DNA of 58,097 nt from Deltaproteobacteria bacterium. Its GTDB lineage: Bacteria; Desulfobacterota; Desulfuromonadia; Geobacterales; Pseudopelobacteraceae. The notes under the pieces were generated by a model, which did not search any database, had not been told where the DNA came from, and worked only from the letters and a program-made list of their open reading frames with translations. The stretch spans positions 1 through 58,097 of the forward strand of contig JAFLLC010000082.1 in assembly GCA_019162745.1 (NCBI GenBank), given 5' to 3'. A program made the position numbers and the translations under genes. Position 1 is the stretch's first letter, and every line of letters begins with the position of its first letter. Of this stretch, positions 135 to 18,295 are shown piece after piece.

Positions 135-173
135 ATGACGCAGAGAATAATCGTAAGCATCCATTCGCTCTGA
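135..173 (+). CDS. Possible 12-residue leader peptide ahead of the kinase gene
   Basis: A short ATG frame encodes MTQRIIVSIHSL. A purine-rich GGGAGAG lies at 121-127, upstream of its ATG. Its TGA stop overlaps the kinase ATG by one base (TGATG). The kinase ATG itself has no good ribosome-binding site, so translational coupling through this leader would explain how it is initiated. Only the sequence arrangement supports this; the peptide has no recognisable function. Confidence 0.35.
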   Translation: MTQRIIVSIHSL

Positions 174-2773: not shown

Positions 2774-2801
2774 TCATTACATCCAAAAGAGAACTTATTT
2801 C

Positions 2802-3779: not shown

Positions 3780-4284
3780 CGTAAAACGGCTGTTCATGAA
3801 CCACAGAGCAGCTACGCAATAGAGAAATCAACCTGAAAAAGGCTGTTAACCGCCGATGTACGGCGATACACGCAGAGAAATCAGGTACTTATTAAAAACT
3901 GATCTAACCCAAATCAGAGAATTTACATCTGAACGCACCTTGCTCTGGTAGTTGAGTCAGGGGATTCGTCGCATTTCGATTCCGAACCTTAATTGCCCAA
4001 AAACACCCACCTGCAGCCTGCTCAACCTTTCCCAATGCAACAATTCCCCGGCACCTAAGTGCAGAACCTGCATGGTGTAGTGCAAATTCTGCAGAATATA
4101 TCGATCAGCATAAAATCCACATTTTGCTAACACATTGCAATAACAGCTCTTTAATATTTGGCACACTAAATGTATTAAACTTCGAACCACCGTAACTAAC
4201 TGTAATCATTGATATATTTATTTATATATCAATGTATGCAAATAATCGCATTTAACGTGGCAACAAAAACAGGAGGAACAAAAA
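3780..4284. other. 505-bp intergenic region upstream of the tetraheme cytochrome
   Basis: No convincing gene is present. About 3840-3880 is a decayed relative of the GGAGAA-type palindromic repeats seen elsewhere in the window. At 4159-4173 TTGGCAC followed at sigma54 spacing by GTA instead of TGC resembles a weak -24/-12 element. At 4207-4234 there is a perfect AT-rich inverted repeat, described separately. A strong ribosome-binding site AGGAGG at 4271-4276 serves the gene at 4285. The size and content suggest a control region for the tetraheme gene. Confidence 0.5.
4207..4234. promoter_or_regulatory. Perfect 11-bp inverted repeat, putative operator or leader hairpin
   Basis: CATTGATATAT at 4207-4217 and its exact reverse complement at 4224-4234 flank a 6-base spacer. 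The repeat ends 50 bp before the cytochrome start codon and lies about 35 bp after a weak sigma54-like element. It could bind a dimeric regulator or fold in the mRNA leader. Confidence 0.5.
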
Positions 4285-4881
4285 ATGAAAAAAATTATCC
4301 TAATTACCGTAGCTGTACTTGCAGGTGTAAGTTTAGCGGGGCTTTCTCAGGCAGCAGGCACTATAGTCGGCTCCAAGCATGATCTGAAAGCCATCTCTGG
4401 TGGTGAGATCTGTATCGTCTGCCACACCCCCCATAATGCCGACATCACAACCACTGACGCCCCACTCTGGAACCACACCCTAACCACTGCCAGTTACACA
4501 CTGTATGCAAGCCCCACCTTAAATGCCACAGCTACTATCGCCCAACCGACCGGAGTCTCAAAACTCTGTCTTTCCTGCCACGACGGCACAGTAGCCCCGG
4601 ACGCCTTCACCGGTCATGCCGGCACTACTACTATCGCAGCTGCAGGTAATCTGAGCACCAATCTAAAAAAAAGCCACCCGGTTTCCTTTACCTATAGTGA
4701 TGCAATGGCCACCGCTGACGGTGAACTTGCCGCTCCCAGTTCGCTGCCGCCAGGTTGGGTTAACGGCGACAAGTTTGAATGTTCATCATGCCATGACGTG
4801 CACAACAAGACCGGATTCCCGGCAATGCTGCTCAAAGACAATACCGCTTCCGCGCTCTGCCTGACCTGCCACACCAAGTAG
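4285..4881 (+). CDS. Tetraheme c-type cytochrome, OmcE-like (candidate filament subunit)
   Basis: A 198-residue secreted protein. The signal peptide ends near AGLSQA (about residue 23). Four CXXCH heme motifs follow (CIVCH, CLSCH, CSSCH, CLTCH), the last at the extreme C-terminus. The spacing, the CHTPHN and CLSCHDGTVAP segments and the HPVSF motif match the small tetraheme cytochromes of the OmcE type, which polymerise into extracellular filaments in Geobacter. That comparison is from memory, not from a search. A strong AGGAGG precedes the start. A long hairpin after the gene separates it from the next genes, which could give it higher transcript levels than the accessory operon. The N-terminal part of the 12-heme protein at 10734 is its homologue. 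Confidence 0.85.
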   Translation: MKKIILITVAVLAGVSLAGLSQAAGTIVGSKHDLKAISGGEICIVCHTPHNADITTTDAPLWNHTLTTASYTLYASPTLNATATIAQPTGVSKLCLSCHDGTVAPDAFTGHAGTTTIAAAGNLSTNLKKSHPVSFTYSDAMATADGELAAPSSLPPGWVNGDKFECSSCHDVHNKTGFPAMLLKDNTASALCLTCHTK

Positions 4882-4905
4882 CCGATACCGCGCATAATTT
4901 GGCCT

Positions 4906-4943
4906 CACAAGAGGTCATATCCGCCGGGATATGGCCTCTTGTG
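4906..4943 (+). terminator. Long hairpin after the tetraheme gene
   Basis: CACAAGAGG plus CATATCC pair with GGATATG plus CCTCTTGTG around a 4-base loop, giving about 16 pairs with one mismatch. Only a weak T-rich tail (TTCTCC) follows, so it may be a leaky terminator or an mRNA-stabilising 3' end that sets the cytochrome apart from the operon downstream. Confidence 0.6.
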
Positions 4944-4995
4944 TTCTCCAGTAGTAACATATCACTTTTGTAATCTAGATTTTGTTGAGGGGCTC

Positions 4996-6066
4996 ATGAA
5001 CAAGATTCTTCGCACGGCCGCTTTTCTGCTGGCAACAATCATCCTGGCAACCGGTTGCTCAAGCGGTCCGGAAACCAGACATGACCCCATATTTTATCCG
5101 CAGCTGCCTGACAAACCACGCCTGCAGTTTCTGGCCGCTATCTCTTCCGAAGACGACCTGACGGACAAGAAGCCGGGACTGGACGATTTCATCCTTGGCG
5201 GCCGTGAAACCGACAAGATTTTAGGGCGGCCATATGCGGTACAAGCCGCTAAAGGGAATATCTATCTGATCGATCGGATCTCCAATGATATCCTGCAGAT
5301 CAATCTGGTCACTAGCACCATCAGCCCGTTGCGTGCCGGAGGCCGTGGAGCGCTTCTGACGCCTTCCGGCATCTGGATAACGGAAGATGGCAGTAAATAT
5401 GTTGCCGACCTCAAGCGAAAGCAGGTGGTGGTCTTTGACCGTGACAACCGCTTTGTGAAAGCCATAGGAGACTCTACCAGCCTTGAAAGGCCGACTGAAG
5501 TTTCCGTGTATGGCGATCGGGTCTATGTCTGCGATATGCAGAAACATCAGGTGGTGGTGTTTGACCGCATTACCGGTAAAATGTTGACCGCCATTGGCAA
5601 GGTCGGTGAGAAAGATGGTGAGTTCAATCGCCCCACCCATATCACGGTTGACCGGGAGGGAAATCTGATCGTCAATGATGCCTTCAACTTCAGAATCCAG
5701 AAGTTTGCACCGGACGGAAATTTCCTGCAACAGATCGGCACCGCCGGCAATACACCCGGCAGTATGGCGCGACCCAAGGGGGTAGCGGTAGATCATGATG
5801 GAAACCTGTATGTAGTTGATGCCGCCTTTGAGAATGTGCAGATTTTTAGTCCGGAGGGAAAGCTGCTGCTGTTTTTTGGCGGCGCTGGCCTGGAGCCAGG
5901 CAGTATGTACCTGCCGGCCGGAATTGCCATTGATTACGTCAATGTCCCCTATTTCCAAAAATATACGGACAAAAATTTCAAAATCAAATATCTGATCTAC
6001 GTCTGCAACATGACCGGAGCCAACAAGTTGAACGTCTACGGCTTTGGTGATTGGATCGGGGAGTAG
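4996..6066 (+). CDS. NHL-repeat (six-bladed beta-propeller) lipoprotein
   Basis: A 356-residue protein. Start 4996 is chosen because GAGG lies at 4987-4990 and the resulting N-terminus is a lipoprotein signal with lipobox ATGC at about residues 16-19. A longer frame from 4939 would spoil it. The mature part repeats NHL blades such as RPTHITVDREGNLIVNDAFN and RPKGVAVDHDGNLYVVDAAF, typical of six-bladed propellers that act as protein-binding platforms. It is the first gene of a tightly spaced run (next start 9 bp after its stop) that contains a pentaheme lipoprotein and a beta-barrel. A second NHL lipoprotein lies at 9685. NHL proteins are known neighbours of Geobacter outer-surface cytochromes; a role in secretion or filament maintenance is inferred. 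Confidence 0.88.
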   Translation: MNKILRTAAFLLATIILATGCSSGPETRHDPIFYPQLPDKPRLQFLAAISSEDDLTDKKPGLDDFILGGRETDKILGRPYAVQAAKGNIYLIDRISNDILQINLVTSTISPLRAGGRGALLTPSGIWITEDGSKYVADLKRKQVVVFDRDNRFVKAIGDSTSLERPTEVSVYGDRVYVCDMQKHQVVVFDRITGKMLTAIGKVGEKDGEFNRPTHITVDREGNLIVNDAFNFRIQKFAPDGNFLQQIGTAGNTPGSMARPKGVAVDHDGNLYVVDAAFENVQIFSPEGKLLLFFGGAGLEPGSMYLPAGIAIDYVNVPYFQKYTDKNFKIKYLIYVCNMTGANKLNVYGFGDWIGE

Positions 6067-6074
6067 CGCCAACC

Positions 6075-6875
6075 ATGATCTGCAAGCAGGTATATTTTTT
6101 CCTAACGGCAAGCCGTCACATGAGATTGCTCACGGTTGTTCTCTTCGCTGTGGGCGTTGCCGGATGCTCGCGACAGGCCAGCCACCAGGTGCTGACTTTT
6201 TTCTTTACCGGAGTTCCGCCACTCGAAGAACAACAGGCAGAGCAAAAGCCAGCGCCTGGTACCACGTCGTCACTGAAAGGAGAACGAAACTCGGGAGCGG
6301 CGGGGCAATCACCTGTTAAAAAGCAGAGCACCGCTGTTGCGGGGCAGCCGGATACATTGTCGAAAGTACCGAAAGTGCCGGAAGCGCCCCGCTTGTTCTC
6401 CCATCCGGTCTGGGCCGGAGGAGATTGTTCCCCCTGTCATGAAGGGAGCGGAGTATTCGGTTTCCAGCCCGGCGGGCAGCCTAAAAAAAATATTGCGACC
6501 AAGATATTTAACAGTGGTGGCGGCATGCCGGGCAAACTGCGCCTTACTAAGGAAAAGATCTGCACGACGTGCCATACAGACAAAACCGGCTTGCGGGCGG
6601 TCAAGGACAATCTCTGGCTGCATAATCCCACTGCCAAGGGAGATTGCCTCGCCTGTCACGACGCACACCAGAGCAAACAGCGCGGAGTGCTGCGCAGACT
6701 GCCGGAGCAGCTCTGTCAGCCCTGCCATCCGGCAGAGAAGCTGGCAGCGACAGCGATACACCGCAACAGCAACGAGTCGTGCCTTTCCTGCCATAATCCC
6801 CATATGGGTAAGGACCGGCGCCTGCTGTTTCAGGATTATCAGGAAATTAAACAGGCGGCCCAACATGAACAGTAG
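6075..6875 (+). CDS. Pentaheme c-type cytochrome lipoprotein
   Basis: Five CXXCH motifs (CSPCH, CTTCH, CLACH, CQPCH, CLSCH) occupy the C-terminal two thirds, with doubled-CXXCH spacing and CHDAH and CHNPH ligand segments. The N-terminus has a lipobox VAGC followed by a low-complexity linker of about 80 residues rich in Q, P, K and G, as expected for a membrane-tethered protein reaching across the periplasm. ATG 6075 has GGGGAG upstream. ATG 6120 gives a shorter, cleaner lipoprotein signal (MRLLTVVLFAVGVAGC) but lacks a clear ribosome-binding site. Directly followed by the beta-barrel gene, it is placed like the periplasmic cytochrome of a porin-cytochrome conduit. This role is inferred. Confidence 0.85.
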   Translation: MICKQVYFFLTASRHMRLLTVVLFAVGVAGCSRQASHQVLTFFFTGVPPLEEQQAEQKPAPGTTSSLKGERNSGAAGQSPVKKQSTAVAGQPDTLSKVPKVPEAPRLFSHPVWAGGDCSPCHEGSGVFGFQPGGQPKKNIATKIFNSGGGMPGKLRLTKEKICTTCHTDKTGLRAVKDNLWLHNPTAKGDCLACHDAHQSKQRGVLRRLPEQLCQPCHPAEKLAATAIHRNSNESCLSCHNPHMGKDRRLLFQDYQEIKQAAQHEQ

Positions 6876-6929
6876 TTTTCTGAGCGAGGTTACACACTCG
6901 TGGTACGCCAGGAATGTCAGGAAGGCCTG

Positions 6930-9656
6930 ATGACTCGTACTGTTGCTGTATTGCTATGTATGCTTCAACTTACCTGCAGCGCCGCAGCCGAACCTCTGGC
7001 CGGCAGCGTAACGGAGATCCGCACTATTTTTGAAAATGAGTTATTTAATATGGCTTACACTGCCAGTTCTGAAAATGAGAAGCATGACGAGGCCCTGAAG
7101 GTCGCCGAACAGGCTGTTAAAGCCAGGCAGGCAGATCGTGAGTGGCGCAGGAGGGCGGCCCGCTCTGCCGAATTGGCTGGTCAGAATGACCTGGCTTTAG
7201 CGCACTGGCTGTTTCTTTCCGAGCTGGGCGATGGCACAGCTCGTCAGTCAGCGCTAAGACTTTCACGCCGTATGAATGAATTCCCGGTGCGACGCTATTT
7301 GCTGGAGGGGATGCTGTTGGCAGGATATGACGATCCGACATTACTGAAGGAATATCTGACCGTGAGTGAGGCGGTGGGGGCGGCCAGCGAAGCGTATGAC
7401 CTGCTGGCATCAAGACTGACCTACAGTAATCGCGAGCTGCTGCTGCAGGAACAGGCGCGACTGGCAGAGTTGCTCGGAAAACCTGCCGATGCGGTTAACG
7501 CGCTGGACAAGCTGGCCCTGATCAGACCCTTAACCCCGGATGAAACAATCAGGCGCGCAAAGCTGATGTTCGGGCAGGGGGATCTGGCGCGTGCCTGGCA
7601 GACATCCCACGGTTTGGAACCGGACACTAAAATCCAGCCTGATGAACCGGCAGAAGACTTTTTACCCTTGCATTCGGCTCCTGAAACGGCACAAACAGCA
7701 CAGGAACAGCACCCGACTGTTCCTGAAACCCGCCGCAGCTTTAACTGGAATGCCACCTCGCGCAGGCGGGCTGAACGGCATTATTTTCAGATTGATCCGC
7801 CTGCGGTGGGGGCCTTGGTAAAGTATGAAATCAATCAGGATGAACGTACAGTTTCCGGCCAAAAAAGCATTGACAGCTCTCATACCATTACCGAACGGCT
7901 CGATCTGGCAACCAGTGGTTTTGTCTATCATCCGGCGCTACTGCAGTTCAGCCTGAAATTCTCGCCTGAATTCAGGCAGAGTACCCAGACAAAATCAGAA
8001 CTAAGCGACGAAACCAGCACTAACGGCACCAGTTTCAGTCCAAACTATCAAACCAGTGCCGTTTTTTTCGGCCAGAAACCATATACGCTTACTTCGTTTG
8101 CCCAACACCTTGAAGCACAGTCATGGGCAACCTATACCGGCGTTACCCGGACGACCACCGACAGTTTCGGGGCAGACCTTTCCCTGAAATACAGCCTGCT
8201 TCCAACTACGATCGGCTTCAGCAGCAGTAAATCGGAACAGGACGGCTATTTTGTAACCGGCAGCGAGTGGCAGGAAGTTCACCTGCTGTCCAGGCACAGC
8301 GGCATAACCGGCGACAGCTCCCTTTCTTCAAGTTACAGCAGCAACAAACAGGACACCAACGGGGTGGCCAACGAAATCAAGACCATGAACAGCTCATTCA
8401 GCAATCAATACAAGGTGACGACTGACAGCAGGATCCATCTTGCTACAAACCTGCAGCTTATGAGTCAGGAATCCCTGAATTTACAGAACGACTCTCTGCA
8501 GATAAGCGAAAACCTTGCCTGGCAGCACCTGGAAAATTTGCGGTCTCAATACACTTTCAATTATCGTCAGTTTGAAACAGGATCTACGTCAACTAAATGG
8601 AGTTCACTTGACGGCCGGCTAACTCACAAGCTTTATGAAAATCTGACCACCACCGCAGGTGGAAGCGGGACCTTGAACAGCTACAGCGGCGGAGAAGAAA
8701 AGGCGCTGACTGCGCTGCTGAACAGCGCCTACCAGCGCCGCCTCGGGAAATGGGGCACTCTGAACCTGAATGCCGGAGCAAATTATCTGCATACTACCCG
8801 CAAGGGAGTCAAGGGAACGGCAGAACTCAGTAACGAGCCTCATACACTGAACAGCACGGCAGAGACCTTCCTTGACAAGTCCGGTATAAACACCGATTCG
8901 ATTGTGGTCACAAATAGTGCCGGCACCATTATTTACGTCAAGGATATCGACTACCGGATTGACCTCATCGGCAACTCGGTAAGAATCAGCCGTTTGCCGC
9001 TGGGAGCCGTTACCGACGGACAGCTTGTATTGGTCAGCTACAGCTACACACGCGATGCCGGGTATGACGATTCGGTTTTTACGCAGAACTACGGCATTTC
9101 GCTGGAGCTGAAGCGGTCATTGTTCCTGTCGTACCGGTACCTGCAGGCAAAACAAACTGTGCTTGCAGGGCCGCCTCCGGAACGTTTGAGCGATACTATT
9201 ATTCACCTGGCGGCAATTCGCTATGTCGCGGGGTGGAGCGAAACTGGCGCCACTATTGAGGACAATGACACCACGGATATTTCCTACCGTCGCTGGGAAC
9301 TTACCGAAGCCATTGTACTGCAGCCGAGCAACTGGCTGCAGTACAATCTGCGCGGCTATTATGGGAAAACCGACTATCGGTCGCATGAAGATTCAAAAAA
9401 AACCTTCGGTGCCACCACCAGCTTGAACTGGACGCCGTTAAGCTGGCTGCGGTTCGAGATGGAGGGTTACCTTGAAGAGGCAGATGGTACCCTTGAAAAA
9501 ACGACCAATCGCGGCGCCAAGGCGGGCATCGGGATGAACTACCGTCTCTGGACGGTCAGACTGAGCCACAAACTGTCGGAGCAGGACAACGAGACCAGTG
9601 ATTACAAGCGAAGCAATCAGGTCATGCAAATCGAGTTAAGCCGGACGCTATGGTAG
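6930..9656 (+). CDS. Outer-membrane beta-barrel with N-terminal TPR-like helical domain
   Basis: A 908-residue protein. Start 6930 has AGGAAGG six bases upstream and gives a signal peptide ending near SAAAEP; an upstream frame from 6900 adds ten unlikely residues. Residues about 30-240 are alanine- and leucine-rich helices resembling TPR units. After a linker, residues about 270-908 alternate polar and aromatic residues as in amphipathic beta-strands and end in SRTLW, a C-terminal aromatic signal used by barrel proteins. Around residues 645-705 a small inserted domain (VVTNSAGTIIYVKDIDYRI and following) interrupts the strands. It sits between cytochrome and propeller genes, so it is the probable outer-membrane channel of this locus. 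No close named homologue can be assigned by eye. Confidence 0.82.
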   Translation: MTRTVAVLLCMLQLTCSAAAEPLAGSVTEIRTIFENELFNMAYTASSENEKHDEALKVAEQAVKARQADREWRRRAARSAELAGQNDLALAHWLFLSELGDGTARQSALRLSRRMNEFPVRRYLLEGMLLAGYDDPTLLKEYLTVSEAVGAASEAYDLLASRLTYSNRELLLQEQARLAELLGKPADAVNALDKLALIRPLTPDETIRRAKLMFGQGDLARAWQTSHGLEPDTKIQPDEPAEDFLPLHSAPETAQTAQEQHPTVPETRRSFNWNATSRRRAERHYFQIDPPAVGALVKYEINQDERTVSGQKSIDSSHTITERLDLATSGFVYHPALLQFSLKFSPEFRQSTQTKSELSDETSTNGTSFSPNYQTSAVFFGQKPYTLTSFAQHLEAQSWATYTGVTRTTTDSFGADLSLKYSLLPTTIGFSSSKSEQDGYFVTGSEWQEVHLLSRHSGITGDSSLSSSYSSNKQDTNGVANEIKTMNSSFSNQYKVTTDSRIHLATNLQLMSQESLNLQNDSLQISENLAWQHLENLRSQYTFNYRQFETGSTSTKWSSLDGRLTHKLYENLTTTAGGSGTLNSYSGGEEKALTALLNSAYQRRLGKWGTLNLNAGANYLHTTRKGVKGTAELSNEPHTLNSTAETFLDKSGINTDSIVVTNSAGTIIYVKDIDYRIDLIGNSVRISRLPLGAVTDGQLVLVSYSYTRDAGYDDSVFTQNYGISLELKRSLFLSYRYLQAKQTVLAGPPPERLSDTIIHLAAIRYVAGWSETGATIEDNDTTDISYRRWELTEAIVLQPSNWLQYNLRGYYGKTDYRSHEDSKKTFGATTSLNWTPLSWLRFEMEGYLEEADGTLEKTTNRGAKAGIGMNYRLWTVRLSHKLSEQDNETSDYKRSNQVMQIELSRTLW

Positions 9657-9684
9657 AGATAGCACGGCGCGCAAGGTAAATATC

Positions 9685-10737
9685 ATGCCCGAAAACAACA
9701 GGACGTTTTTCATATGCACGCTGCTCTGCTGCCTGATGGCTTTAACTGGCTGCGCCGCTTCGCAGCAAGCCATGGCTGGAGCGGCGGGAGAGGCTCCAAC
9801 CTGGCCAAGCGATGGTGAAACCGTGCGGATACGCTATGTAAGCAGCTTTTCCCTGCCGGAAGATCTGCAGATCCGGCAGGGGATGTTGTCTCGCATATGG
9901 GACTACGTCGTAGGCGCTCCCTTCCGTGGGTTGGCGGCTCCCCATGGAATAGCCGTTGACGCCGATGGGACAATTTATGTGGTTGATGCGGCGCTAAAGA
10001 CCGTACAGATCTACAACGGCAGCAAAAATAAATTCAGCATGGTCCCGGATGACGACCATCTTTTTAAAGCACCGATCAATCCGGCAGTGGATATTGATGC
10101 CGCGCGGCTGTATGTCACCGACTCAGCTGACGGCCTGGTGAGATTTTTCCCTCTGGCAAGCGGCGGAGCTCCCGGAGAGTTCGGCAAGGGACAGCTTGAA
10201 CGCCCCACCGGTATCGCTCTCAATAATCAGACCAATGAACTGTTGGTGCTTGACACCAGACAGGAAGCGGTCTTTCGCTATAACCGCCAGGACCTGACTT
10301 TGATGGGGCGTTTCGGCTCTCGCGGTACCGGAGACGGACAGCTTAACCGTCCCACCGACCTGACGGTCAACAGCAGCGGCGAGATCCTGGTAAGTGATTC
10401 CCTGAATTTCAGAGTTCAGGTTTTTTCACCTACAGGTGAGTTTAGGCGCGTCTTTGGCGCGGCAGGTGACACACCCGGTTATTTCAGCCGCCCAAAGGGG
10501 ATTGCCGTGGACAGCGACAGCAATATCTATGTGGTGGATACCCTGTTCGACAATGTCCAGATTTTTGATACGGAGGGGAAGCTGCTGCTCTCCTTCGGGC
10601 GCGCCGGCCAGGGACCGGGAGAATTCTGGATGCCCGCCGGTATCTGTATTGACCGGAACGACCGGATCTATGTCGCCGACACCTACAACAAGCGGATACA
10701 GACCTTCCAGTATCTGAAACAGGCGGGGCACAAATGA
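9685..10737 (+). CDS. Second NHL-repeat beta-propeller lipoprotein
   Basis: A 350-residue protein with lipoprotein signal (lipobox LTGC at about residues 20-23) and several NHL blades, for example HGIAVDADGTIYVVDAALK and RPTDLTVNSSGEILVSDS. Its architecture parallels that of the protein at 4996, so the locus carries two propellers around the barrel gene. Its stop overlaps the start of the 12-heme cytochrome (ATGA), suggesting coupled translation and stoichiometric production. Likely anchored in the outer membrane and acting as a scaffold or partner of the cytochromes. The exact function is inferred from position only. Confidence 0.88.
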   Translation: MPENNRTFFICTLLCCLMALTGCAASQQAMAGAAGEAPTWPSDGETVRIRYVSSFSLPEDLQIRQGMLSRIWDYVVGAPFRGLAAPHGIAVDADGTIYVVDAALKTVQIYNGSKNKFSMVPDDDHLFKAPINPAVDIDAARLYVTDSADGLVRFFPLASGGAPGEFGKGQLERPTGIALNNQTNELLVLDTRQEAVFRYNRQDLTLMGRFGSRGTGDGQLNRPTDLTVNSSGEILVSDSLNFRVQVFSPTGEFRRVFGAAGDTPGYFSRPKGIAVDSDSNIYVVDTLFDNVQIFDTEGKLLLSFGRAGQGPGEFWMPAGICIDRNDRIYVADTYNKRIQTFQYLKQAGHK

Positions 10738-12434
10738 ACACTCTTTTCATCAAAACCGGAATGCTGTGGGGAGCGGCCTTCATGGCGTTCATAACTGCTC
10801 CCGCATATGGTAAAAGCATTATCGACAGCATGCATAATCTTTCGGCCAGCGGACCGGGAGCGGTAAAGGCGACGACCCAGACCGAGATCTGCATCTTCTG
10901 TCATACTCCTCATAATTCCCGGTCTGATATCCCGTATCTCTGGAACCGGCAGGACCCGGCAGGTCCCTATACTCCCTATTACAGCTCAACCCTTAAAGCT
11001 GCTGTCGGCCAGCCCACCGGCACGTCCCGGCTCTGTCTTTCCTGCCATGACGGCACCATTGCCCCCGGCGCCGTACTTTCGCAGACAACGGCAATGCCGT
11101 TTACCGCATCTATGACCGGCCGCAGCTCTAATCTCGGCACCAACCTGGCAGACGATCACCCGGTTTCTTTTGATTACAGCGCTGCTGCAGCATTAAACGG
11201 CCAGTTGGTAAGCGCCGGTTCCCTGCCCTCCGTGGTGCGTCTGGATGCAGCCGGCCAGATGCAGTGTACCGCCTGTCACAACCCCCACAACGATCAGTAC
11301 GGAAAGTTTTTGGTCATGTCCAACCTTGGTGCGGCGCTCTGTGTCAGCTGCCATAGCAAAACCAACTGGAGCGGAAACAGCCACGCAACCTCGTCAAAAA
11401 CCTGGAACGGCGCCAGCTCCGACCCGTGGCCCAAATCAAGCTATACCACCGTCGCTGACAACGGCTGCGGCAACTGTCACAGCCCCCACAACGCTACAGG
11501 GGAGCAGAGACTGCTGAACTATGACGTGGAGGAAACCACCTGCCTGGTCTGCCACAACGGCAACGTTGCCGGCGCCAATATCAGTAACGACCTGGCCAAA
11601 ATATACCGGCACCCGGTTGACGCCTTCACCGGCATTCATGATACTGCCGAAAACTATGCCGGCATCGTCAGCAAGCATGTTGAATGTGTCGACTGCCATA
11701 ACCCGCACCAGGTAAGCGATGTTGTCAATACTGCACCACTGGTTCCCGGTAGAATGCGTGGGGTGCCGGGGGTTGATTTTTATACCAATGCCTATCTCCC
11801 CTCGGCTACCTACGAGTATCAGATCTGTTTTAAATGCCACGGAGACATGACCAATAACGTACTCCCCTCCGCCCAGCCCATCATCAGGTATTGGACCAAC
11901 ACGAGAGATAACCGCGTGAAGTTCGCCCCGACCAACATCTCCTATCACCCGCTGCTGGCGCCGCTGAACAAGATAAGCGACAGCATGCTGGTTGCACCCT
12001 GGGCACGCGGCATGATGATCTACTGTACGGACTGTCACGGCAGCAATTCAGGCGGAGCAAGGGGCTCCCACGGCTCGATCTACCCCCATATCCTGGTCTT
12101 GAAATACGAGACCTCCGAAGTTTTGCCAACTTCATCCACGGCTTATCTTACTGATAATGCGCTCTGCTTCAAATGTCACAATTCGGATACGCTTTTTGGT
12201 GGTTCCACTTTTCCACAGCATAAAAAACATTTGAACTCTCCCACAGGCACAAACGAACGTTGCTCCTATTGCCACGATCCGCACGGCAGCCCCACCAACG
12301 CGGGCATGATCAACTTTGACATGCGACCGGGGATAGTCAGCCTGAGCGGTGGAAAACCCATACAACTCAACTATCCGTTGAATAACAAGCAAACATGTGT
12401 CCTGACCTGTCATGGGTATGTCCACGGCTCGTAA
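10734..12434 (+). CDS. Dodecaheme c-type cytochrome with OmcE-like N-terminal module
   Basis: A 566-residue secreted cytochrome with signal peptide ending near TAPAYG. Eleven CXXCH motifs plus a terminal CX3CH (CVLTCH, within nine residues of the end) give up to twelve hemes. Residues about 25-215, with four hemes, align end to end with the 198-residue tetraheme protein at 4285, sharing EICI.CHTPHN, LCLSCHDGT.AP, HPVSF and CHNPHN-type blocks. The remaining 350 residues carry eight hemes with longer spacers. It overlaps the preceding propeller gene by 4 bp. It may be a filament-like, capping or connecting cytochrome. Surface location is inferred. Confidence 0.87.
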   Translation: MNTLFIKTGMLWGAAFMAFITAPAYGKSIIDSMHNLSASGPGAVKATTQTEICIFCHTPHNSRSDIPYLWNRQDPAGPYTPYYSSTLKAAVGQPTGTSRLCLSCHDGTIAPGAVLSQTTAMPFTASMTGRSSNLGTNLADDHPVSFDYSAAAALNGQLVSAGSLPSVVRLDAAGQMQCTACHNPHNDQYGKFLVMSNLGAALCVSCHSKTNWSGNSHATSSKTWNGASSDPWPKSSYTTVADNGCGNCHSPHNATGEQRLLNYDVEETTCLVCHNGNVAGANISNDLAKIYRHPVDAFTGIHDTAENYAGIVSKHVECVDCHNPHQVSDVVNTAPLVPGRMRGVPGVDFYTNAYLPSATYEYQICFKCHGDMTNNVLPSAQPIIRYWTNTRDNRVKFAPTNISYHPLLAPLNKISDSMLVAPWARGMMIYCTDCHGSNSGGARGSHGSIYPHILVLKYETSEVLPTSSTAYLTDNALCFKCHNSDTLFGGSTFPQHKKHLNSPTGTNERCSYCHDPHGSPTNAGMINFDMRPGIVSLSGGKPIQLNYPLNNKQTCVLTCHGYVHGS

Positions 12435-12498
12435 CCAGCAATTGAACAGATTGAAGCCTGTTTGTCGGCAGCATATAACATCACAGAGGAGTAACTTT

Positions 12499-13866
12499 AT
12501 GTACAGAATCAGGCAGTATACTTCGTTGTTGACGTCAATAAGCTGCACCGTCAGTGCCGTTCTGTTGTTTTTAGCGTTGTCTGCAGCGCACTCCGAGGCA
12601 AGATCGGGCTTTACCCTGAAAAAGGGGCAGGGGTGCGTTACCGCCGAATGTCACCAGAATATGGGCAGGGACAAATATGTGCATGGTCCGGTAGCCACTG
12701 GAAACTGTACCTTCTGCCACAAACAGGAGAGTAAAGAGCGGCATGAATTCAAGCCGATTTCCGACGTGGCGGCCCTCTGTTATGCCTGCCACGACAAGCT
12801 GCCTCTGGGACCGGTGGTACACAAACCGGTGAAGGATGGCAACTGTACCGGATGCCACAGCCCGCACCAGTCGGGGAACAACTTCCAGCTGCTGGGAGGA
12901 GGGCAGGATCTCTGTTTTGTCTGCCACAAGAAAACTATTTTAAGCGGTAAAGTAAAGCACAGTCCAGTGGCAAGTGGTGAATGCAGCAACTGTCATGGCC
13001 ATCACTCCGGCAGCTTCCCCAAGCTGCTGTCCGGCAATGGCAATGATGTCTGCTACACGTGCCATACGGATAAACAGACCGAATTTTCAGCCAAACCGCA
13101 TATCCATGCACCGATGAAGAGCGGTTGCGTGCAGTGTCACAATCCACACAGCAGCGATTACAAGTATGTGCTGATCGGAGAGCATACCAAAGGGGTCTGC
13201 TTTGCCTGCCACAAGGACAAGCATAAGGAGATTGCGGGCGCCACCGTCAAACATGGCGGTCTTGAGTTGGAAAACGGCTGCATGGCCTGCCACTCCCCCC
13301 ATACATCGGCTTTTCCGAAACAGTTGGCTATGGCGCCGATGGATCTTTGTTTGAGCTGCCATGACCGTGACTACGCCCATGCCGACAAGAAAACAGCCGA
13401 CATGAAGGGATTTCTCGCCACGAACAAGATTACCCATGGTCCGATCAAAGACAAGGATTGCTCAGGCTGCCACAACACCCACGGGTCGAGCAGCTTCAGG
13501 ATCCTGAGAGGCAACTATCCCCCGGTTTTCTATGCCAAATTCAATCCCGAAAATTACAAACTCTGCTTCAACTGTCACAACGACACCCTGGTGCAGGATG
13601 CCAAAACAACCACCCTTACCGGTTTCCGTAACGGCGACCAGAACCTGCATTTCGTCCACGTCAACAAGTCTCCCAAGGGGAGGACCTGCCGCGCCTGTCA
13701 TGACGCCCACGCCACCAATAACCCGAAGCACGTCCGGGATACGGTTCCCTTTGGCGCGTGGCAGCTGCCGGTTGGACTGGTAAAAAACAAGAGCGGCGGT
13801 TCCTGTCTGCCAGGCTGCCATCAGGAGTTCAAATATGATCGGGAAAAGATGGTGAAAAACAGATGA
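12499..13866 (+). CDS. Large multiheme c-type cytochrome, up to 15 hemes
   Basis: A 455-residue protein. Start 12499 follows AGAGGAG at 12485-12491 and gives a signal peptide ending near HSEARS; a longer frame from 12412 lies inside the preceding gene. Thirteen CXXCH motifs are flanked by an N-terminal CX4CH (CVTAECH) and a C-terminal CX3CH (CLPGCH). The protein is a chain of doubled-CXXCH repeats with the pattern H.PV..G.C..CH.PH, rich in Lys and His and with little else, as in wire-like periplasmic or surface cytochromes. It overlaps the next gene by 4 bp. Its place between the surface-type cytochrome and chaperone-like genes suggests a periplasmic or conduit role, which is inferred. Confidence 0.87.
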   Translation: MYRIRQYTSLLTSISCTVSAVLLFLALSAAHSEARSGFTLKKGQGCVTAECHQNMGRDKYVHGPVATGNCTFCHKQESKERHEFKPISDVAALCYACHDKLPLGPVVHKPVKDGNCTGCHSPHQSGNNFQLLGGGQDLCFVCHKKTILSGKVKHSPVASGECSNCHGHHSGSFPKLLSGNGNDVCYTCHTDKQTEFSAKPHIHAPMKSGCVQCHNPHSSDYKYVLIGEHTKGVCFACHKDKHKEIAGATVKHGGLELENGCMACHSPHTSAFPKQLAMAPMDLCLSCHDRDYAHADKKTADMKGFLATNKITHGPIKDKDCSGCHNTHGSSSFRILRGNYPPVFYAKFNPENYKLCFNCHNDTLVQDAKTTTLTGFRNGDQNLHFVHVNKSPKGRTCRACHDAHATNNPKHVRDTVPFGAWQLPVGLVKNKSGGSCLPGCHQEFKYDREKMVKNR

Positions 13867-14204
13867 TTCGGCTCTTCAGAATATTGTTACTTTGTCTCGC
13901 TGTTGCCGTCACAGCCGGGCCTGCAACTGCAGGCCCGGCTGCAGAGAATCAACCGCATGACCAACAGGCGGCCGGATCTGATCATAACGGCACAATCGGT
14001 AAGGCCCTGGCTTTAGTGCAGCAAGGAAAATCTGTTGAAGCGGAACAACTGCTGCTGCAGGCTCTGGCACTAACCCCTGATCCTGCACAGGTATATTATC
14101 AGCTTGGACGGATCTACGATCAGCGCGGCGACAACCTGAAGGCCATTGCCGCTTTCAAGGAAGGGATCAAAATCCATGAGCAGGGGAGACGCACAAGCCG
14201 ATGA
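13863..14204 (+). CDS. Small secreted TPR protein
   Basis: A 113-residue protein with signal peptide (hydrophobic 6-20, cleavage near TAGPAA) and about two TPR units (residues 43-110; for example QVYYQLGRIYDQRGDNLKAI). The start and stop overlap both neighbours by 4 bp (ATGA at each junction), so it is embedded in the cytochrome operon and probably translated by coupling. TPR units mediate protein-protein contacts; here it may assist cytochrome assembly together with the thioredoxin-TPR protein that follows. No family more specific than TPR can be named. Confidence 0.8.
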   Translation: MIRLFRILLLCLAVAVTAGPATAGPAAENQPHDQQAAGSDHNGTIGKALALVQQGKSVEAEQLLLQALALTPDPAQVYYQLGRIYDQRGDNLKAIAAFKEGIKIHEQGRRTSR

Positions 14205-15325
14205 GAAGATTCGCCTGCACTACCAGATCTCTTGCCGTCCGTCTGATGCCGCTATGGGTTTTGCTTGTCCTGTTAAACACCTCCATTTCATCATCCGCTC
14301 TCCGCTCGCTGGAGGTGGGGATGGAGGCTCCGGACTTTATGCTGAAGGATCTGAACAACAACGCGCAAAGTCTTTCAGGTCTCAGGGGAGAAAAGTTAAC
14401 GGCGGTACTGTTCTGGGCAACATGGGGAAACAACTCAAAAAAGGCCCTGCAGCAGATGCAATCCCTTCATCAGAAATATAAAGATGCCGGCCTGTCTGTC
14501 ATAGGAATCAACGTCGACAAACAGGACGTAACAGAAGAAACCTTGACTACCATAAAGGGAGTTGCCGCCTCACTGAATATCACCTTCCCCCTGCTGGTTG
14601 ACCGGGGACTTGCATCATTCAACAACTACGGCATTATCGCCGTCCCGAGCACGGTTATTCTCGACAGGAACCGGGTCATTAAATATGAGCTGTCAGGTTT
14701 CCCACTGATGGGAGCAGACTCTTTGAAACTGTTTGTCGAAGCGGCCGTAGAGAACAAAAGCAAACCGGATCAGATCGCCGTAACCGGCTATCAGCCGGAT
14801 AAAAAGGCGGTGCGACTCTGGAATATGGGAACCAGTTCACTGAAATCAGAACGAACCGCCAAAAGTGCCAGATCGTGGTTTGAGAAGGCTATTGCAGCCG
14901 ATCCGGCATTTACCCTGCCCTATCTGAGCCTCGGCGAGCTGTACTACAAACAGCACAACCTGACCGAAGCCAAGAAACAGTTCGAGCTGGTGCTGCAAAA
15001 AAAACCGGATCATGCCATTGCCCTCTGTGCGTTGGGACAGATTTTACTTGATGAGGGAAATCTGCCGGGCGCTGAGCAGAAACTGGCAAAAGCTGTTAAG
15101 GCCGACGAGGCCTATCTGCCCGGTTACTACCTGCTTGGCCTCCTGAAGGGCAGGCAGGGAGATGTGCCAGCGGCCCTGCAGTGGTTCAAGAGGGCAGAGG
15201 AGATCCATCCAGGGGATTACAGGATCTTTGTCCATAAAGGGATGATGTATGAAGAACGAAAAGAGCTGCCCGCTGCCGCAGCCGGATATAAAAAAGCGCT
15301 GGAACTGATCATGGGACAGCTATGA
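14201..15325 (+). CDS. Thioredoxin/TlpA-like domain lacking active-site cysteines, fused to TPR repeats
   Basis: A 374-residue protein. A signal or anchor segment lies at about 14-30. A TlpA/ResA-type thioredoxin domain at about 38-180 keeps APDFMLKDLNN, FWATW and the cis-proline loop AVPST (Pro149), but the CXXC after WATW is replaced by GNNS (residues 76-79). It therefore cannot do thiol-disulfide exchange at that site. Residues about 215-370 are TPR repeats (LSLGELYYK, ALGQILLDEG, LLGLLKGRQG). Standard relatives reduce apocytochrome cysteines before heme attachment. This one more likely binds apocytochromes or partners as a chaperone, which is inferred. It overlaps both neighbouring genes by 4 bp. 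Confidence 0.85.
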   Translation: MRRFACTTRSLAVRLMPLWVLLVLLNTSISSSALRSLEVGMEAPDFMLKDLNNNAQSLSGLRGEKLTAVLFWATWGNNSKKALQQMQSLHQKYKDAGLSVIGINVDKQDVTEETLTTIKGVAASLNITFPLLVDRGLASFNNYGIIAVPSTVILDRNRVIKYELSGFPLMGADSLKLFVEAAVENKSKPDQIAVTGYQPDKKAVRLWNMGTSSLKSERTAKSARSWFEKAIAADPAFTLPYLSLGELYYKQHNLTEAKKQFELVLQKKPDHAIALCALGQILLDEGNLPGAEQKLAKAVKADEAYLPGYYLLGLLKGRQGDVPAALQWFKRAEEIHPGDYRIFVHKGMMYEERKELPAAAAGYKKALELIMGQL

Positions 15326-16323
15326 AACCGTTATTAAAGAACATACTGATCAGCGGCATTGTCACCGTCACCTGCCTGTTTTTTATGGCCGCAGGCCTCC
15401 ACGCCGCGACGCTCCGTGTGCTGTCACCGGCAAACAACAGTTTTGTTGAACACGAACTGCTCAGCATTGTGCTGTCGCTTCAGGATGGAAACGCCACCGC
15501 CGTTAAGGCTGTTGTAAACGGCAAAACCTATACCAAGACCTTAGCTGAAGGCGGCAGCAGCAAAATCGTCTGTTTCGGCGTAAATCTAGTCAATGGCTCA
15601 AACAGGATTGTCATAACCGCTGCAAACGATTCCGGCGAAATCGGCAAGAGCAATGTTTCCATCTATCTTCGTTCCAGGCTTTCCAAGCCTCACCAGCAGC
15701 CTCCGGCAGGGTTCCAGCGCTACTATTTCCATCTGCCCGCTAATGAAGGAGCCTGCGCGCCCTGCCATCGGATGGAAGCGGATCTGAACGATCTGCACCC
15801 CGCAAAACCGGAAGACTCTCCCTGTTTTAAATGCCACAAACGCAAGGACAGCAGCGTCTTCAAACACAAGCCGGTCTCTGCGGGAGCTTGCTTCAGTTGC
15901 CACGAAGTTGTTACGGGGAAACGTAAATACACCACGCCGAAACCTGAGCAATCGATCTGTTTCCTTTGCCATAGCACCCAGCAAAACCTCTGGAAAAATA
16001 AAAAAGTGCACCATGGTCCCACAGCCGTGGGTAACTGTACCGTCTGCCACGACCCGCACGGGTCGGATTGGCCTTCCTTTATCTATATGCATCCGACAGA
16101 CCTCTGCCTCAACTGCCACAATGACAAGAAAAGCGGTCTCCATGTAATTGCCGGTTTTTTTGCCAAGGGTCATCCGGTAAGGGGGGATAAAAACCCGCTG
16201 AAACCGGAACGTCCCTTTTCCTGCGCGGGGTGCCACAATCCCCACGCAGGTGATACCCAAAGTCTGCTTAACAAGGAACGCGGCAACAATAGCGCCTATT
16301 GCCAGACCTGTCACAAACTGTGA
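15322..16323 (+). CDS. Octaheme c-type cytochrome with N-terminal Ig-like domain
   Basis: A 333-residue secreted protein. The signal peptide ends near GLHAAT. Residues about 29-115 form a beta-rich Ig-like domain (RVLSPANNSFVEHELLSIV; SNRIVITAANDSG). Eight CXXCH motifs follow from about residue 147 to the last residues (CQTCHKL), with doubled-CXXCH repeats of the type K.VHHGPTAVGNCTVCHDPHG. It overlaps the preceding gene by 4 bp and is the last gene of the tightly packed run; the next start lies 79 bp away. The Ig domain probably docks it to another component. Location and partner are unknown. Confidence 0.87.
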   Translation: MKPLLKNILISGIVTVTCLFFMAAGLHAATLRVLSPANNSFVEHELLSIVLSLQDGNATAVKAVVNGKTYTKTLAEGGSSKIVCFGVNLVNGSNRIVITAANDSGEIGKSNVSIYLRSRLSKPHQQPPAGFQRYYFHLPANEGACAPCHRMEADLNDLHPAKPEDSPCFKCHKRKDSSVFKHKPVSAGACFSCHEVVTGKRKYTTPKPEQSICFLCHSTQQNLWKNKKVHHGPTAVGNCTVCHDPHGSDWPSFIYMHPTDLCLNCHNDKKSGLHVIAGFFAKGHPVRGDKNPLKPERPFSCAGCHNPHAGDTQSLLNKERGNNSAYCQTCHKL

Positions 16324-16402
16324 TCAAAGGACTTATTTTTGAACGATATATCGAGGGCGACAATTTAAGTGACAGAACCCACATCGTGGGGAATTCGACG
16401 GA

Positions 16403-17287
16403 ATGAGAGGGTTTATGCAAAGATCACGACGTATCACCGGTAAGAAAATTCTGGCTGGATTGGCTATTGTCCTGGCGTTTGGCGGCGTATCCCACGCTTC
16501 ACCGCAAGGGAATAAATCGGCAACGGTCACCATACCTCCAACGCCTGAGCAGTACTCCAGCACCCCGCAGCCGTTAACGGCTGTCCAATGCGCCCAGTGC
16601 CACCCAGGCCTGTTCAAAAATCTTAAAAACGAGGGTGGACGCCACCGCTTTGCCTGCCAGAGCTGCCACAACGTCTTTCATGCCTACAGTCCACGCAAGG
16701 GCAACTGGGACCAGATTATGCCCACATGTTCATCCTGCCATACAGCCCCGCATGGGGCGAAGATCACTAACTGCACGGCCTGTCACGCCAATCCCCACGC
16801 GCCTAAAAGCATTGCAAGCACTGCACAGCTCACGGCAGCCTGCTATGATTGTCACGGCTCTGTACGTGATGAACTGGTAAAATATCCGAGCAGGCACTCG
16901 AAGCTTCCCTGCATGACCTGCCATACTTCTCATGGTTATAAGCCGTCATGTTTCAACTGCCACCAGCCGCATTTCAAAGGGCAGGCACTGTCAACCTGTC
17001 TGCCATGCCACCCGGTTCATCAACCGCAGAACATCAGGTTCGGCACAAAGGAACCTTCAAATACCTGCAGTTCCTGCCATGCCAAGGCATATACCAACCT
17101 GGCGAAAAGCACCAGCAAGCATAACGCCCTGGCCTGCGTAACCTGTCACAAGGATAAACACCGCTTTATTCCGCAATGTACCGACTGTCATGGAAAACCG
17201 CACACCCAGACAATTCATGAAAAATATCCGAAATGCCTCAGTTGCCATATAGATGTTCATGATATGCCTGTTATGTCGAAAAAATAG
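16403..17287 (+). CDS. Dodecaheme c-type cytochrome (paralogue A)
   Basis: A 294-residue secreted protein with signal peptide ending near GVSHAS and twelve CXXCH motifs spaced closely and evenly from about residue 67 to 287. It is Lys- and His-rich with CH.NPH, CH.KPH and CH.DVH ligand patterns. ATG 16403 and ATG 16415 are both possible; the latter has GAGAGG four bases upstream. It resembles the following gene (290 residues, also twelve hemes), including a matched ACVTCHKDKH or NCVTCHKDKH block near the end, so the pair arose by duplication. Small size per heme fits a periplasmic electron shuttle, but the sequence does not prove the location. Confidence 0.87.
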   Translation: MRGFMQRSRRITGKKILAGLAIVLAFGGVSHASPQGNKSATVTIPPTPEQYSSTPQPLTAVQCAQCHPGLFKNLKNEGGRHRFACQSCHNVFHAYSPRKGNWDQIMPTCSSCHTAPHGAKITNCTACHANPHAPKSIASTAQLTAACYDCHGSVRDELVKYPSRHSKLPCMTCHTSHGYKPSCFNCHQPHFKGQALSTCLPCHPVHQPQNIRFGTKEPSNTCSSCHAKAYTNLAKSTSKHNALACVTCHKDKHRFIPQCTDCHGKPHTQTIHEKYPKCLSCHIDVHDMPVMSKK

Positions 17288-17422
17288 TCCCAATAAAAAG
17301 GACGTCGGCATTAGGGGGGTGCCGGTCGCCGCTATTGTAACTGAAAAAACCTGGACAAATATAAATGAACATCAGTCAAAAGCCGTAAAATGTTAACCCT
17401 ATTCTTGCTGTAAGGAGGAACG

Positions 17423-18295
17423 ATGATGAATATGATATCTCATGCAAAAAGGTTGTTTCTGGCATCTGTACTGGTGTCTGCTCTTAATGCCGTCGCCTTT
17501 GGCGCCGGGCCTGTGCCTGTGCCTGTGCCTCAACATCAACAAAACCCGGTTCTCGGTAATGCGGACTGCGTGAAGTGCCATGCCGCCGCGACTGCCGACA
17601 TCGCCGCCAATGGAGGCGCACACAAGACTAACGTTACCTGTCAGGATTGTCATAACGGCCATCCGCCAGCAGTTAAAAACATTATCCCGCTGTGTTCGCA
17701 ATGTCACAGCGGCAAGCCACATTACAAACTGGCCGACTGTCAGCGTTGTCACAGCAACCCTCACACCCCTAAAGCCACCAAGCTGGCCAAAAACATAACC
17801 GACGAGTGTGTCACGTGTCATTCTCAGCAGATCGTCAAACTCAGGCAGTTCAAGAGCAAGCACACCAGTCTTGCCTGCACCTACTGTCACAACGTTCATG
17901 GAAGAATTCCGCCCTGTACTCAGTGCCATAAACCGCATAGCGCCGACATGGTGGCAGCTGAATGCAAACGGTGCCACCAGGCACATATGCCGACGGTAAT
18001 CACCTATAAATCAGATACCCCCAACAGGAATTGCGCCTCCTGTCACAAAAAAGCGTCTGATCTGCTTTTATCAACAGATGCGAAACACAGAGATGTAAAT
18101 TGTGTCACATGCCATAAGGACAAGCACAAGATGACGCCGACCTGCCAAAGTTGTCACGGGACGCCTCATCCGGCGGGCATGCTGGCACGCTTCGCCAAGT
18201 GCGCAGATTGCCACAGCATTGCTCACAGCTTGAACCGATGGGAACCAAAGGCCGCCGGTAAGGCCGCCACGATGAAGCCCAAGAAAAAGCATTAA
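17423..18295 (+). CDS. Dodecaheme c-type cytochrome (paralogue B)
   Basis: A 290-residue secreted protein; AAGGAGGAA at 17412-17420 positions the start at 17423 or 17426. The signal peptide is followed by a PVPVPVP stretch, and twelve CXXCH motifs run to about residue 270. It parallels the preceding gene in length, heme number and order, ending in a Lys-rich tail (MKPKKKH). A 135-bp gap containing a GC hairpin precedes it, so it may be expressed separately. A long GC hairpin with a G-quadruplex-capable arm follows. Probable periplasmic or outer-membrane electron carrier; inferred from family resemblance. Confidence 0.87.
   Translation: MMNMISHAKRLFLASVLVSALNAVAFGAGPVPVPVPQHQQNPVLGNADCVKCHAAATADIAANGGAHKTNVTCQDCHNGHPPAVKNIIPLCSQCHSGKPHYKLADCQRCHSNPHTPKATKLAKNITDECVTCHSQQIVKLRQFKSKHTSLACTYCHNVHGRIPPCTQCHKPHSADMVAAECKRCHQAHMPTVITYKSDTPNRNCASCHKKASDLLLSTDAKHRDVNCVTCHKDKHKMTPTCQSCHGTPHPAGMLARFAKCADCHSIAHSLNRWEPKAAGKAATMKPKKKH

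What the first reader, a model, noticed from the sequence alone, without database searches (positions are those of the whole stretch)
4285..18295. A 14-kb locus with the parts of a cytochrome-filament assembly and export machine
Directly visible: an OmcE-like tetraheme protein, two NHL-propeller lipoproteins, a pentaheme lipoprotein, a TPR plus beta-barrel protein, 12-, 15- and 8-heme cytochromes, a TPR protein, a cysteine-less thioredoxin-TPR protein and two 12-heme paralogues; 68 heme motifs in all. From memory, Geobacter sulfurreducens OmcS nanowires need companion genes (osc cluster) that include channel-like proteins, a beta-propeller and a chaperone. This locus has analogous parts but no prolyl isomerase and more cytochromes. 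Inference: it is a distinct, self-contained nanowire or conduit system for the tetraheme protein.
Basis: partly seen in the sequence, partly recalled or inferred. Interest (0 to 1): 0.88.

Follow-up and report, generated by a model that had tools for sequence, protein, structure and literature searches.

The report
Cytochrome-wire gene cluster with built-in base
A Geobacter-like bacterium carries a block of genes for a probable protein wire that moves electrons out of the cell, and the core of that block, including a likely base piece for the wire, turns up in many distant bacterial groups, which makes the open question of how such wires are attached to cells testable.

Summary
In detail: twelve same-strand genes (A-L, 4285-18295) encode 65 CXXCH plus three CX3-4CH motifs, 68 in all. 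A belongs to the OmcE filament family (7tfs, E 1.8e-19) and keeps all four distal histidines. A is firmly linked to a core, B-F (two propeller lipoproteins, a 5-heme lipoprotein, a large beta-barrel, a 12-heme cytochrome): A, B, D, E and F occur together in 34 of 80 scanned loci, from ten named phyla. H-J are shared by few loci, and the K-L pair only by close kin. So it is not a new kind: the core matches, part by part, the published but uncharacterised Uet porin-cytochrome pathway. What I met in none of ten literature searches is that the 12-heme partner F carries its own OmcE-like module fused to eight more hemes; the 82 F modules treed form one group. Best reading: MtrA-like G in barrel D is the trans-membrane conduit, F the surface base, A the filament growing from it. 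Conduit and filament are inferred from homology; F as base is a hypothesis, and F's model failed. Synonymous divergence suggests that genes A-E were exchanged as a block between relatives.

The parts
173..1399 (+). histidine kinase (HisKA, HATPase), likely regulator
   Evidence: Pfam; a same-sized ORF lies at this place in L037-L039 and L066
1418..2773 (+). sigma-54-dependent response regulator
   Evidence: Response_reg + Sigma54_activat; 94% identical in L037, 84% in L038
4158..4172 (+). possible sigma-54 promoter upstream of A: TTGGCAC element
   Evidence: TTGGCAC 100-149 nt upstream of A in 6 of 6 window-type loci; a full strict -24/-12 site only in L039; consensus recalled
4285..4881 (+). 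A: tetraheme cytochrome, OmcE family, predicted filament subunit
   Evidence: 7tfs 1.8e-19, 9yuq 8.4e-28; 4 CXXCH + 4 distal His invariant in 16 of 16 family rows and in 7 of 7 rows with OmcE
4996..6066 (+). B: NHL-propeller lipoprotein
   Evidence: NHL 3e-13, lipobox
6120..6875 (+). C: pentaheme lipoprotein
   Evidence: doubled-CXXCH 1.3e-20
6930..9656 (+). D: TPR-like domain (aa 27-226) fused to a large outer-membrane beta-barrel (aa 286-907)
9685..10737 (+). E: NHL-propeller lipoprotein, directly upstream of F
   Evidence: NHL 1.6e-35; E just upstream of F on the same strand in 62 of 71 testable loci
10734..12434 (+). F: 12-heme cytochrome; N-terminal OmcE-like tetraheme module (about aa 27-210) + eight further hemes; predicted filament base
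   Evidence: profile finds OmcE 7tfs at 1.1e-40 over positions 14-210; F modules one group in the tree
12499..13866 (+). G: 15-heme MtrA-like cytochrome, predicted trans-outer-membrane wire
   Evidence: 6r2q_A (Mtr complex) 5.4e-14; DmsE/MtrA-type decaheme model 1e-32, below its cut-off
13863..14204 (+). H: small TPR protein
14201..15325 (+). I: thioredoxin-fold domain without cysteines + TPR, possible chaperone
   Evidence: AhpC-TSA 4.9e-20, TPR
15322..16323 (+). J: 8-heme cytochrome with a weak N-terminal Ig-like match
   Evidence: Glucodextran_B 0.005, below cut-off; 8-heme J-like gene in 11 of 11 omcE loci read
16403..17287 (+). K: 12-heme cytochrome, probably periplasmic
17423..18295 (+). 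L: 12-heme paralogue of K
18459..19931 (+). second sigma-54-dependent response regulator
   Evidence: conserved at this place in L037 (83%) and L038 (82%)
20048..22684 (+). hybrid histidine kinase with GAF and PAS domains

Best explanation
The locus builds an electron exit (or entry) port with an extracellular cytochrome filament. G, an MtrA-like 15-heme wire, sits in the large barrel D and carries electrons across the outer membrane (inferred from homology to the Mtr complex). F sits at the mouth of the barrel; its eight-heme part takes electrons from G (C may help), and its OmcE-like module offers the same half-open heme/histidine interface that filament subunits offer each other, so A subunits stack on it and grow a tetraheme filament outward (inference). 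Propeller lipoproteins B and E, the TPR domain of D, H and the redox-dead thioredoxin-TPR protein I act in folding, delivery or docking (inference). J, K and L carry electrons across the periplasm (inference). Two flanking sigma-54 two-component systems control it (inference).
For: A is OmcE family with all ligands kept. F's first 210 positions match OmcE at 1.1e-40, and 82 F modules form one side of a branch (SH-aLRT 94, quick tree). G matches the Mtr wire at 5.4e-14; D models as a big barrel whose best VIA row is MtrB. D and F travel together: 51 of 56 D matches have F downstream within 6 kb on the same strand; 43 of 141 genomes have both, 3 only D, 4 only F. A, B, D, E and F are together in 34 of 80 F loci, from ten named phyla; A is labelled in 37 of 40 loci with 7 kb on both sides, and in 20 of 20 window-type and related loci of the order read. 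In named isolates too: Desulforhopalus sp. IMCC35007 has A-J in this order, Carboxylicivirga marina has E F ... A B C D G. In the omcE loci of relatives, a propeller, G- and J-like cytochromes and a 740-800 aa ORF again flank the filament gene.
Against: No experiment. F's model failed and A was not modelled, so heme packing and the A-F contact are untested. The MtrB match of D is tied with TonB receptors and Foldseek TM-scores are low (0.28). G was labelled in only 20 of 80 F loci, so the wire must often be another cytochrome. The careful tree did not finish. D could export A rather than conduct. A propeller-conduit model does not explain why two propellers are needed.
Confidence: 0.6

Rival explanations
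1. Export machine: barrel D is a secretion channel for A (and F), with TPR, propeller and thioredoxin-like proteins as chaperones, as proposed for the osc genes of OmcS; electron flow across the membrane is handled by other conduits.
For: D has a fused TPR domain; H and I look chaperone-like; osc loci share barrel, propeller and long multihemes and are linked in print to OmcS maturation and secretion (PMC12977616, section read); PpiC isomerases occur in some F loci.
Against: An MtrA-like wire (G) beside an MtrB-like barrel is the hallmark of a conduit; in most other phyla D has no TPR domain (lengths) and H and I are rarely present (5 and 11 of 80).
Confidence: 0.25
2. Plain porin-cytochrome conduit without filaments: A is a monomeric soluble or cell-surface electron carrier and F an outer-surface terminal cytochrome like MtrC.
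For: Uet is described in print only as a porin-cytochrome pathway (passages); whether every OmcE homologue polymerises is unknown; physiological roles of filaments are disputed (PMC11077965, search listing only).
Against: A keeps exactly the four distal histidines of OmcE, one of which must come from a neighbour subunit in the OmcE filament; 9yuq, its closest solved relative, is deposited with 16 chains, though its assembly was not seen.
Confidence: 0.13
3. A remnant or shuffled island: a collection of cytochrome genes placed side by side without a common function.
For: Sequence divergence differs sharply along the locus; K and L have relatives elsewhere in most genomes of the order.
Against: Open frames, conserved order in L037 and L038 from A to L, low dN/dS in all genes (0.04-0.44) and multi-phylum linkage of the core.
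Confidence: 0.02

Closest known systems
Uet (undecaheme electron transfer) pathway of 'Ca. Tenderia electrophaga' and Gallionella
   Same: As described (PMC10734462, passages): UetJ with 11-12 doubled-CXXCH motifs, tetraheme UetA, barrel UetC, two NHL proteins UetH/I. Gammaproteobacterial and Nitrospirota F loci (L153, L155, L165) have the same kinds of parts, with triheme genes, and L165 a PpiC isomerase.
   Different: The window has no triheme and no PpiC gene among its 12 genes; it has C, G, H-L and a TPR-fused barrel instead. The description seen does not mention OmcE or filaments.
OmcE filament (7tfs) and its locus
   Same: A and F's N-module are OmcE family; omcE loci (11 read) also carry a propeller lipoprotein, a J-like 8-heme, a 740-800 aa ORF and, in 10, a G-like 10-11-heme.
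   Different: No F and no C in omcE loci; the four genomes with the closest OmcE (59-64%, G024-G027) show no D or F match. G. sulfurreducens itself was not held in that set.
osc / oetABI cluster of OmcS
   Same: Barrel (746-767 aa), propeller, 16- and 26-heme cytochromes with 27-31% match to G, next to a filament gene.
   Different: Hexaheme OmcS, not tetraheme; PpiC isomerase; no F or C; barrels only weakly alike (hhalign 68%). The window's genome has no OmcS match at 1e-20.
MtrCAB / MtoAB
   Different: 15 instead of 10 hemes; no MtrC-type decaheme; filament and propellers added.
Geoalkalibacter ferrihydriticus locus Ga0056053_02426-02431
   Same: MtoA homologue, OmcE homologue and two NHL proteins side by side (PMC12016550, passages).
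   Different: Discussed there as a possible Fe(II)-oxidation locus; no barrel noted.
Verrucomicrobia porin-multiheme clusters of Trout Bog
   Same: Porin with at least 20 strands beside multihemes (PMC5615132, passages); several of the F loci here are Verrucomicrobiota.
   Different: Adjacent cytochromes there have 8 hemes; identity with the F loci was not tested.

Membership tests
OmcE filament cytochromes (protein A) | Homology over the whole tetraheme protein | tested here: met
   7tfs 1.8e-19 over 6-198 of 198
OmcE filament cytochromes (protein A) | Four CXXCH and four distal histidines at the OmcE positions | tested here: met
   8 His columns invariant in 7 of 7 rows incl. OmcE, 9yuq and the F module, and 16 of 16 A rows
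OmcE filament cytochromes (protein A) | Polymerises with inter-subunit heme ligation | not testable with these tools
   single-chain prediction only; both jobs went to D and F
Uet pathway | 11-12-heme doubled-CXXCH cytochrome, barrel, tetraheme and two NHL proteins encoded together | tested here: met
   F, D, A, B, E; definition from passages of PMC10734462
Uet pathway | Triheme cytochromes UetD, E, G | tested here: not met
   no triheme gene among A-L
Uet pathway | Peptidyl-prolyl isomerase UetB | tested here: not met
   no rotamase domain among A-L
Uet pathway | Sequence homology to Tenderia Uet proteins | not testable with these tools
   sequences not held; source paper not held
Osc/Oet (OmcS) cluster | Hexaheme OmcS-type filament gene | tested here: not met
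   no match in the window's genome at 1e-20
Osc/Oet (OmcS) cluster | PpiC isomerase | tested here: not met
   present in osc locus L179, absent from A-L
Osc/Oet (OmcS) cluster | Homologous barrel | tested here: inconclusive
   hhalign probability 68% over 210 columns
Mtr-type porin-cytochrome complex | MtrA-family wire | tested here: met
   6r2q_A 5.4e-14; that chain A is MtrA is recalled, the entry title is 'Structure of the Mtr complex'
Mtr-type porin-cytochrome complex | MtrB-family barrel | tested here: inconclusive
   best VIA row but tied with TonB receptors
Mtr-type porin-cytochrome complex | MtrC/OmcA-family surface cytochrome | tested here: inconclusive
   F and C match an MtrC domain II/IV model only around heme pairs (1.7e-15 and 1.4e-10), as many multihemes do

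The most novel reading that the evidence does not exclude
F is the long-sought base of a cytochrome filament: a membrane-side cytochrome that ends in a filament-type OmcE module, on which A subunits polymerise and through which electrons enter the wire. The A-F pair, with barrel and propellers, is an old module shared by at least eleven bacterial phyla, so Uet-type 'porin-cytochrome' pathways are filament systems.
Probability: 0.4. Interest if true: 0.85.

Novelty: new variant of a known kind. Interest (0 to 1): 0.62.

Why it matters
A 2025 review lists membrane anchoring, electron entry points and secretion of cytochrome filaments as open (PMC12307469, passages). A fixed gene pair, filament subunit plus a larger cytochrome with the same module, gives a concrete anchor candidate that can be deleted or imaged. 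It also ties three literatures (OmcE wires, Uet/porin-cytochrome conduits in iron oxidisers, uncharacterised Verrucomicrobia and Planctomycetes clusters) to one architecture, and suggests that filament-type electron exchange is far commoner than the few species studied.

Tried and rejected
Type and scope: a 'distinct, self-contained nanowire system' was rejected because the core is shared with Uet-like loci. Membership of osc was rejected.

Structure: the AlphaFold2 model of F failed (pLDDT 30.7), so no fold search was run with it. Foldseek ranks Cir and PirA above MtrB for D.

The first matches of D by TPR alone (rows L041-L063) sit in other loci without heme genes, bar one 3-heme gene in L060, and were dropped from all cluster counts. 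Hit lists of BLAST with window proteins miss diverged D genes, so counts come from profiles. Labels there follow size and heme filters of mine, and E and B are separated only by best score; some labels far from F (H, I, G) may be chance relatives.

Sigma-54 scan had an index error and is void; one search replaces it. It finds one strict site of 9 of 10 in the whole window (minus strand, 22712) and none before A; only the TTGGCAC half is conserved.

F matches without D nearby: 8 rows (G086, G055, G132, G012, G077, two of G115, G079); D without F downstream: 5, two of them by coordinates at contig ends. Two F matches carry a stop (G012, G077).

Literature: 10 of 10 searches used; none showed F or UetJ described as carrying an OmcE-like module, but subscription papers (Shen 2025, Baquero 2023, Wang 2022, Eddie 2022) were not held, so the link may be in print there.
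Full report
What is there. Twelve genes on the + strand, 4285-18295, carry 65 CXXCH and three CX3-4CH motifs. In order: A tetraheme, B propeller lipoprotein, C 5-heme lipoprotein, D TPR plus barrel, E propeller lipoprotein, F 12-heme, G 15-heme, H TPR, I thioredoxin-like plus TPR without cysteines in that domain, J 8-heme, K and L 12-heme paralogues. The window's genome (G000, 4.5 Mb, 237 contigs) shares its genus with G080; G080's contig C13 has the same length, 146,327 bases, as the contig of L123, titled 'Geobacteraceae bacterium isolate W4_Combined_metabat1_071', so the host is a Geobacteraceae-type bacterium.

A is an OmcE-family protein. phmmer gives 9yuq 8.4e-28 ('putative multiheme cytochrome c', 16 chains; organism not seen) and OmcE 7tfs 1.8e-19, full length. 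In an alignment with both, eight histidines are invariant in 7 of 7 rows: the four of the CXXCH motifs and H32, H50, H131 and H173 of A; the same eight are invariant in 16 of 16 A rows. In the OmcE filament one heme is ligated by a histidine of the next subunit (PMC12307469, passages). In the window's genome a search with A finds only A and F, and OmcS has no match at 1e-20. OmcZ was not tested.

F is a filament module plus eight hemes. The F profile finds 7tfs at 1.1e-40 over positions 14-210 of 553. In a tree of 156 modules, the 82 F modules fall on one side of a branch (1 change, SH-aLRT 94; 500 of 500 label shuffles need more), nested near OmcE proper and the A proteins of some Uet-like loci; this is the quick tree, as the careful search did not finish. 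So A and F look like old paralogues that stay together.

Linkage in the order. D and F profiles were run over 141 genomes of the order: 56 D matches in 46 genomes, F matches in 47; 51 of 56 D matches have F downstream on the same strand within 6 kb; 43 genomes have both, 3 only D, 4 only F (Fisher p 7e-28, which ignores kinship). Three kinds of locus emerge. (III) the window's: A-L in the same order in L037 and L038; A-J without K-L in L036; contig-cut in L039, L040 and L066. (II) G, B, C, D without TPR, E, F and A, mostly with a giant cytochrome (L064, L065, L067-L069, L086-L094); in L068 and L093 the D gene was not hit by BLAST but an ORF of its size lies in its place. (I) omcE proper: G-like 10-11-heme (10 of 11), J-like 8-heme, propeller, OmcE and a 740-800 aa ORF (11 of 11 each), no F (L075-L085).

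Linkage beyond. Of the 80, 76 carry a phylum name, eleven phyla in all. Profile labels: A 58, B 43, C 30, D 58, E 71, G 20, H 5, I 11, J 3, K 0, L 0 of 80; in the 40 loci with 7 kb on both sides A 37, B 29, C 20, D 32, E 35, G 14. A, B, D, E and F are together in 34 of 80, from ten named phyla, mostly as A-B-(C)-D-E-F or as E-F...A-B-(C)-D. Many are metagenome bins, but Desulforhopalus sp. IMCC35007 (A-J) and Carboxylicivirga marina (E F, two genes, A B C D G) are isolates, and Planctomycetales bacterium ZRK34 (D E F, no A labelled) is a complete genome. In Verrucomicrobiota, cytochromes of other heme numbers stand where C is.

Known relatives. The Uet pathway is described as UetJ (11-12 hemes), UetA (4), UetDEG (3 each), UetB isomerase, UetC barrel, UetHI NHL (PMC10734462, passages). 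Gammaproteobacterial L153 and L155 read E A 3h 3h D E F, and L165 (Nitrospirota) has three trihemes, E, A, a PpiC isomerase, D, E and an 11-heme F. The window is thus a Uet-like variant that lacks the isomerase and trihemes. A PpiC-like ORF was found in 8 of 80 loci (position relative to the core not checked for all). osc loci (L179-L182) share only the outline. Oet, the same cluster kind in methane-consortium partners, is read in print as a conduit (PMC10553843, passages).

Mosaic. Against L037, dS is 0.26 in the upstream regulator, 0.97, 0.74, 1.09, 1.60, 0.83 and 0.48 in A-F, 0.14-0.30 in G-L, and 0.79 in the downstream regulator; against L038 it is high throughout (0.63-2.32) (identity profile). 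In the tree window A groups with L038/L039 (SH-aLRT 81), whereas window F is nearest L037 by path. This fits replacement of the surface module by recombination; a chimeric assembly is not excluded.

Regulation. Two sigma-54 response regulators and two kinases flank the genes. TTGGCAC lies 100-149 nt before A in 6 of 6 window-type loci, but the -12 half is not conserved.

Mechanism and odds. Shown: gene content, families of A, F-module and G, linkage. Inferred: D as barrel of G, A as filament. Hypothesis: F as base. Overall 0.6 for the conduit-plus-filament reading, 0.4 for F as the base.

Noticed in passing
window 4285-12434 versus flanks (L037 comparison): Genes A-E (and partly F) are far more diverged at synonymous sites from L037 than the genes on both sides (dS 0.74-1.60 against 0.14-0.30), as if the surface module were exchanged as a cassette.
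   Followed up: partly
window 2802-3779: ORF with a DUF4405 domain at the start and a transposase-type HTH (HTH_Tnp_1) match at 175-225; L038 has a 293-aa ORF at this place and L037 shows no DNA match to 2801-4000.
   Followed up: no
window 34548-36695: A separate cytochrome of 715 aa with 9-10 heme motifs, MG2 and chitobiase/Fn3-type domains and a Cytochrome_cB match.
   Followed up: no
L126:11771-13261, also L115, L117, L131, L166: Between the E-F pair and A-B-C-D lie a sensor kinase with one CXXCH-type motif and a regulator-sized ORF; in L126 the kinase matches a Mcp40H-20 sensor domain, so a heme-bearing sensor may control the cluster (only L126 was checked by Pfam).
   Followed up: partly
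G081:C46, G096:C40, G111:C79: An L-like 12-heme match lies about 4 kb upstream of the barrel gene in these three genomes, hinting that dodecahemes join the cluster more than once (coordinates).
   Followed up: no
L075-L085: In 11 of 11 omcE loci an ORF of 740-800 aa ending in F lies downstream of the filament gene; its profile aligns weakly, end to end at the C-terminus, with D (hhalign 39%), so omcE may have its own barrel.
   Followed up: partly
6r2q chain A in the solved-structure table: The Mtr-complex chain that G matches is labelled 'Cystathionine beta-synthase' in the list, an evident mislabel.
   Followed up: no
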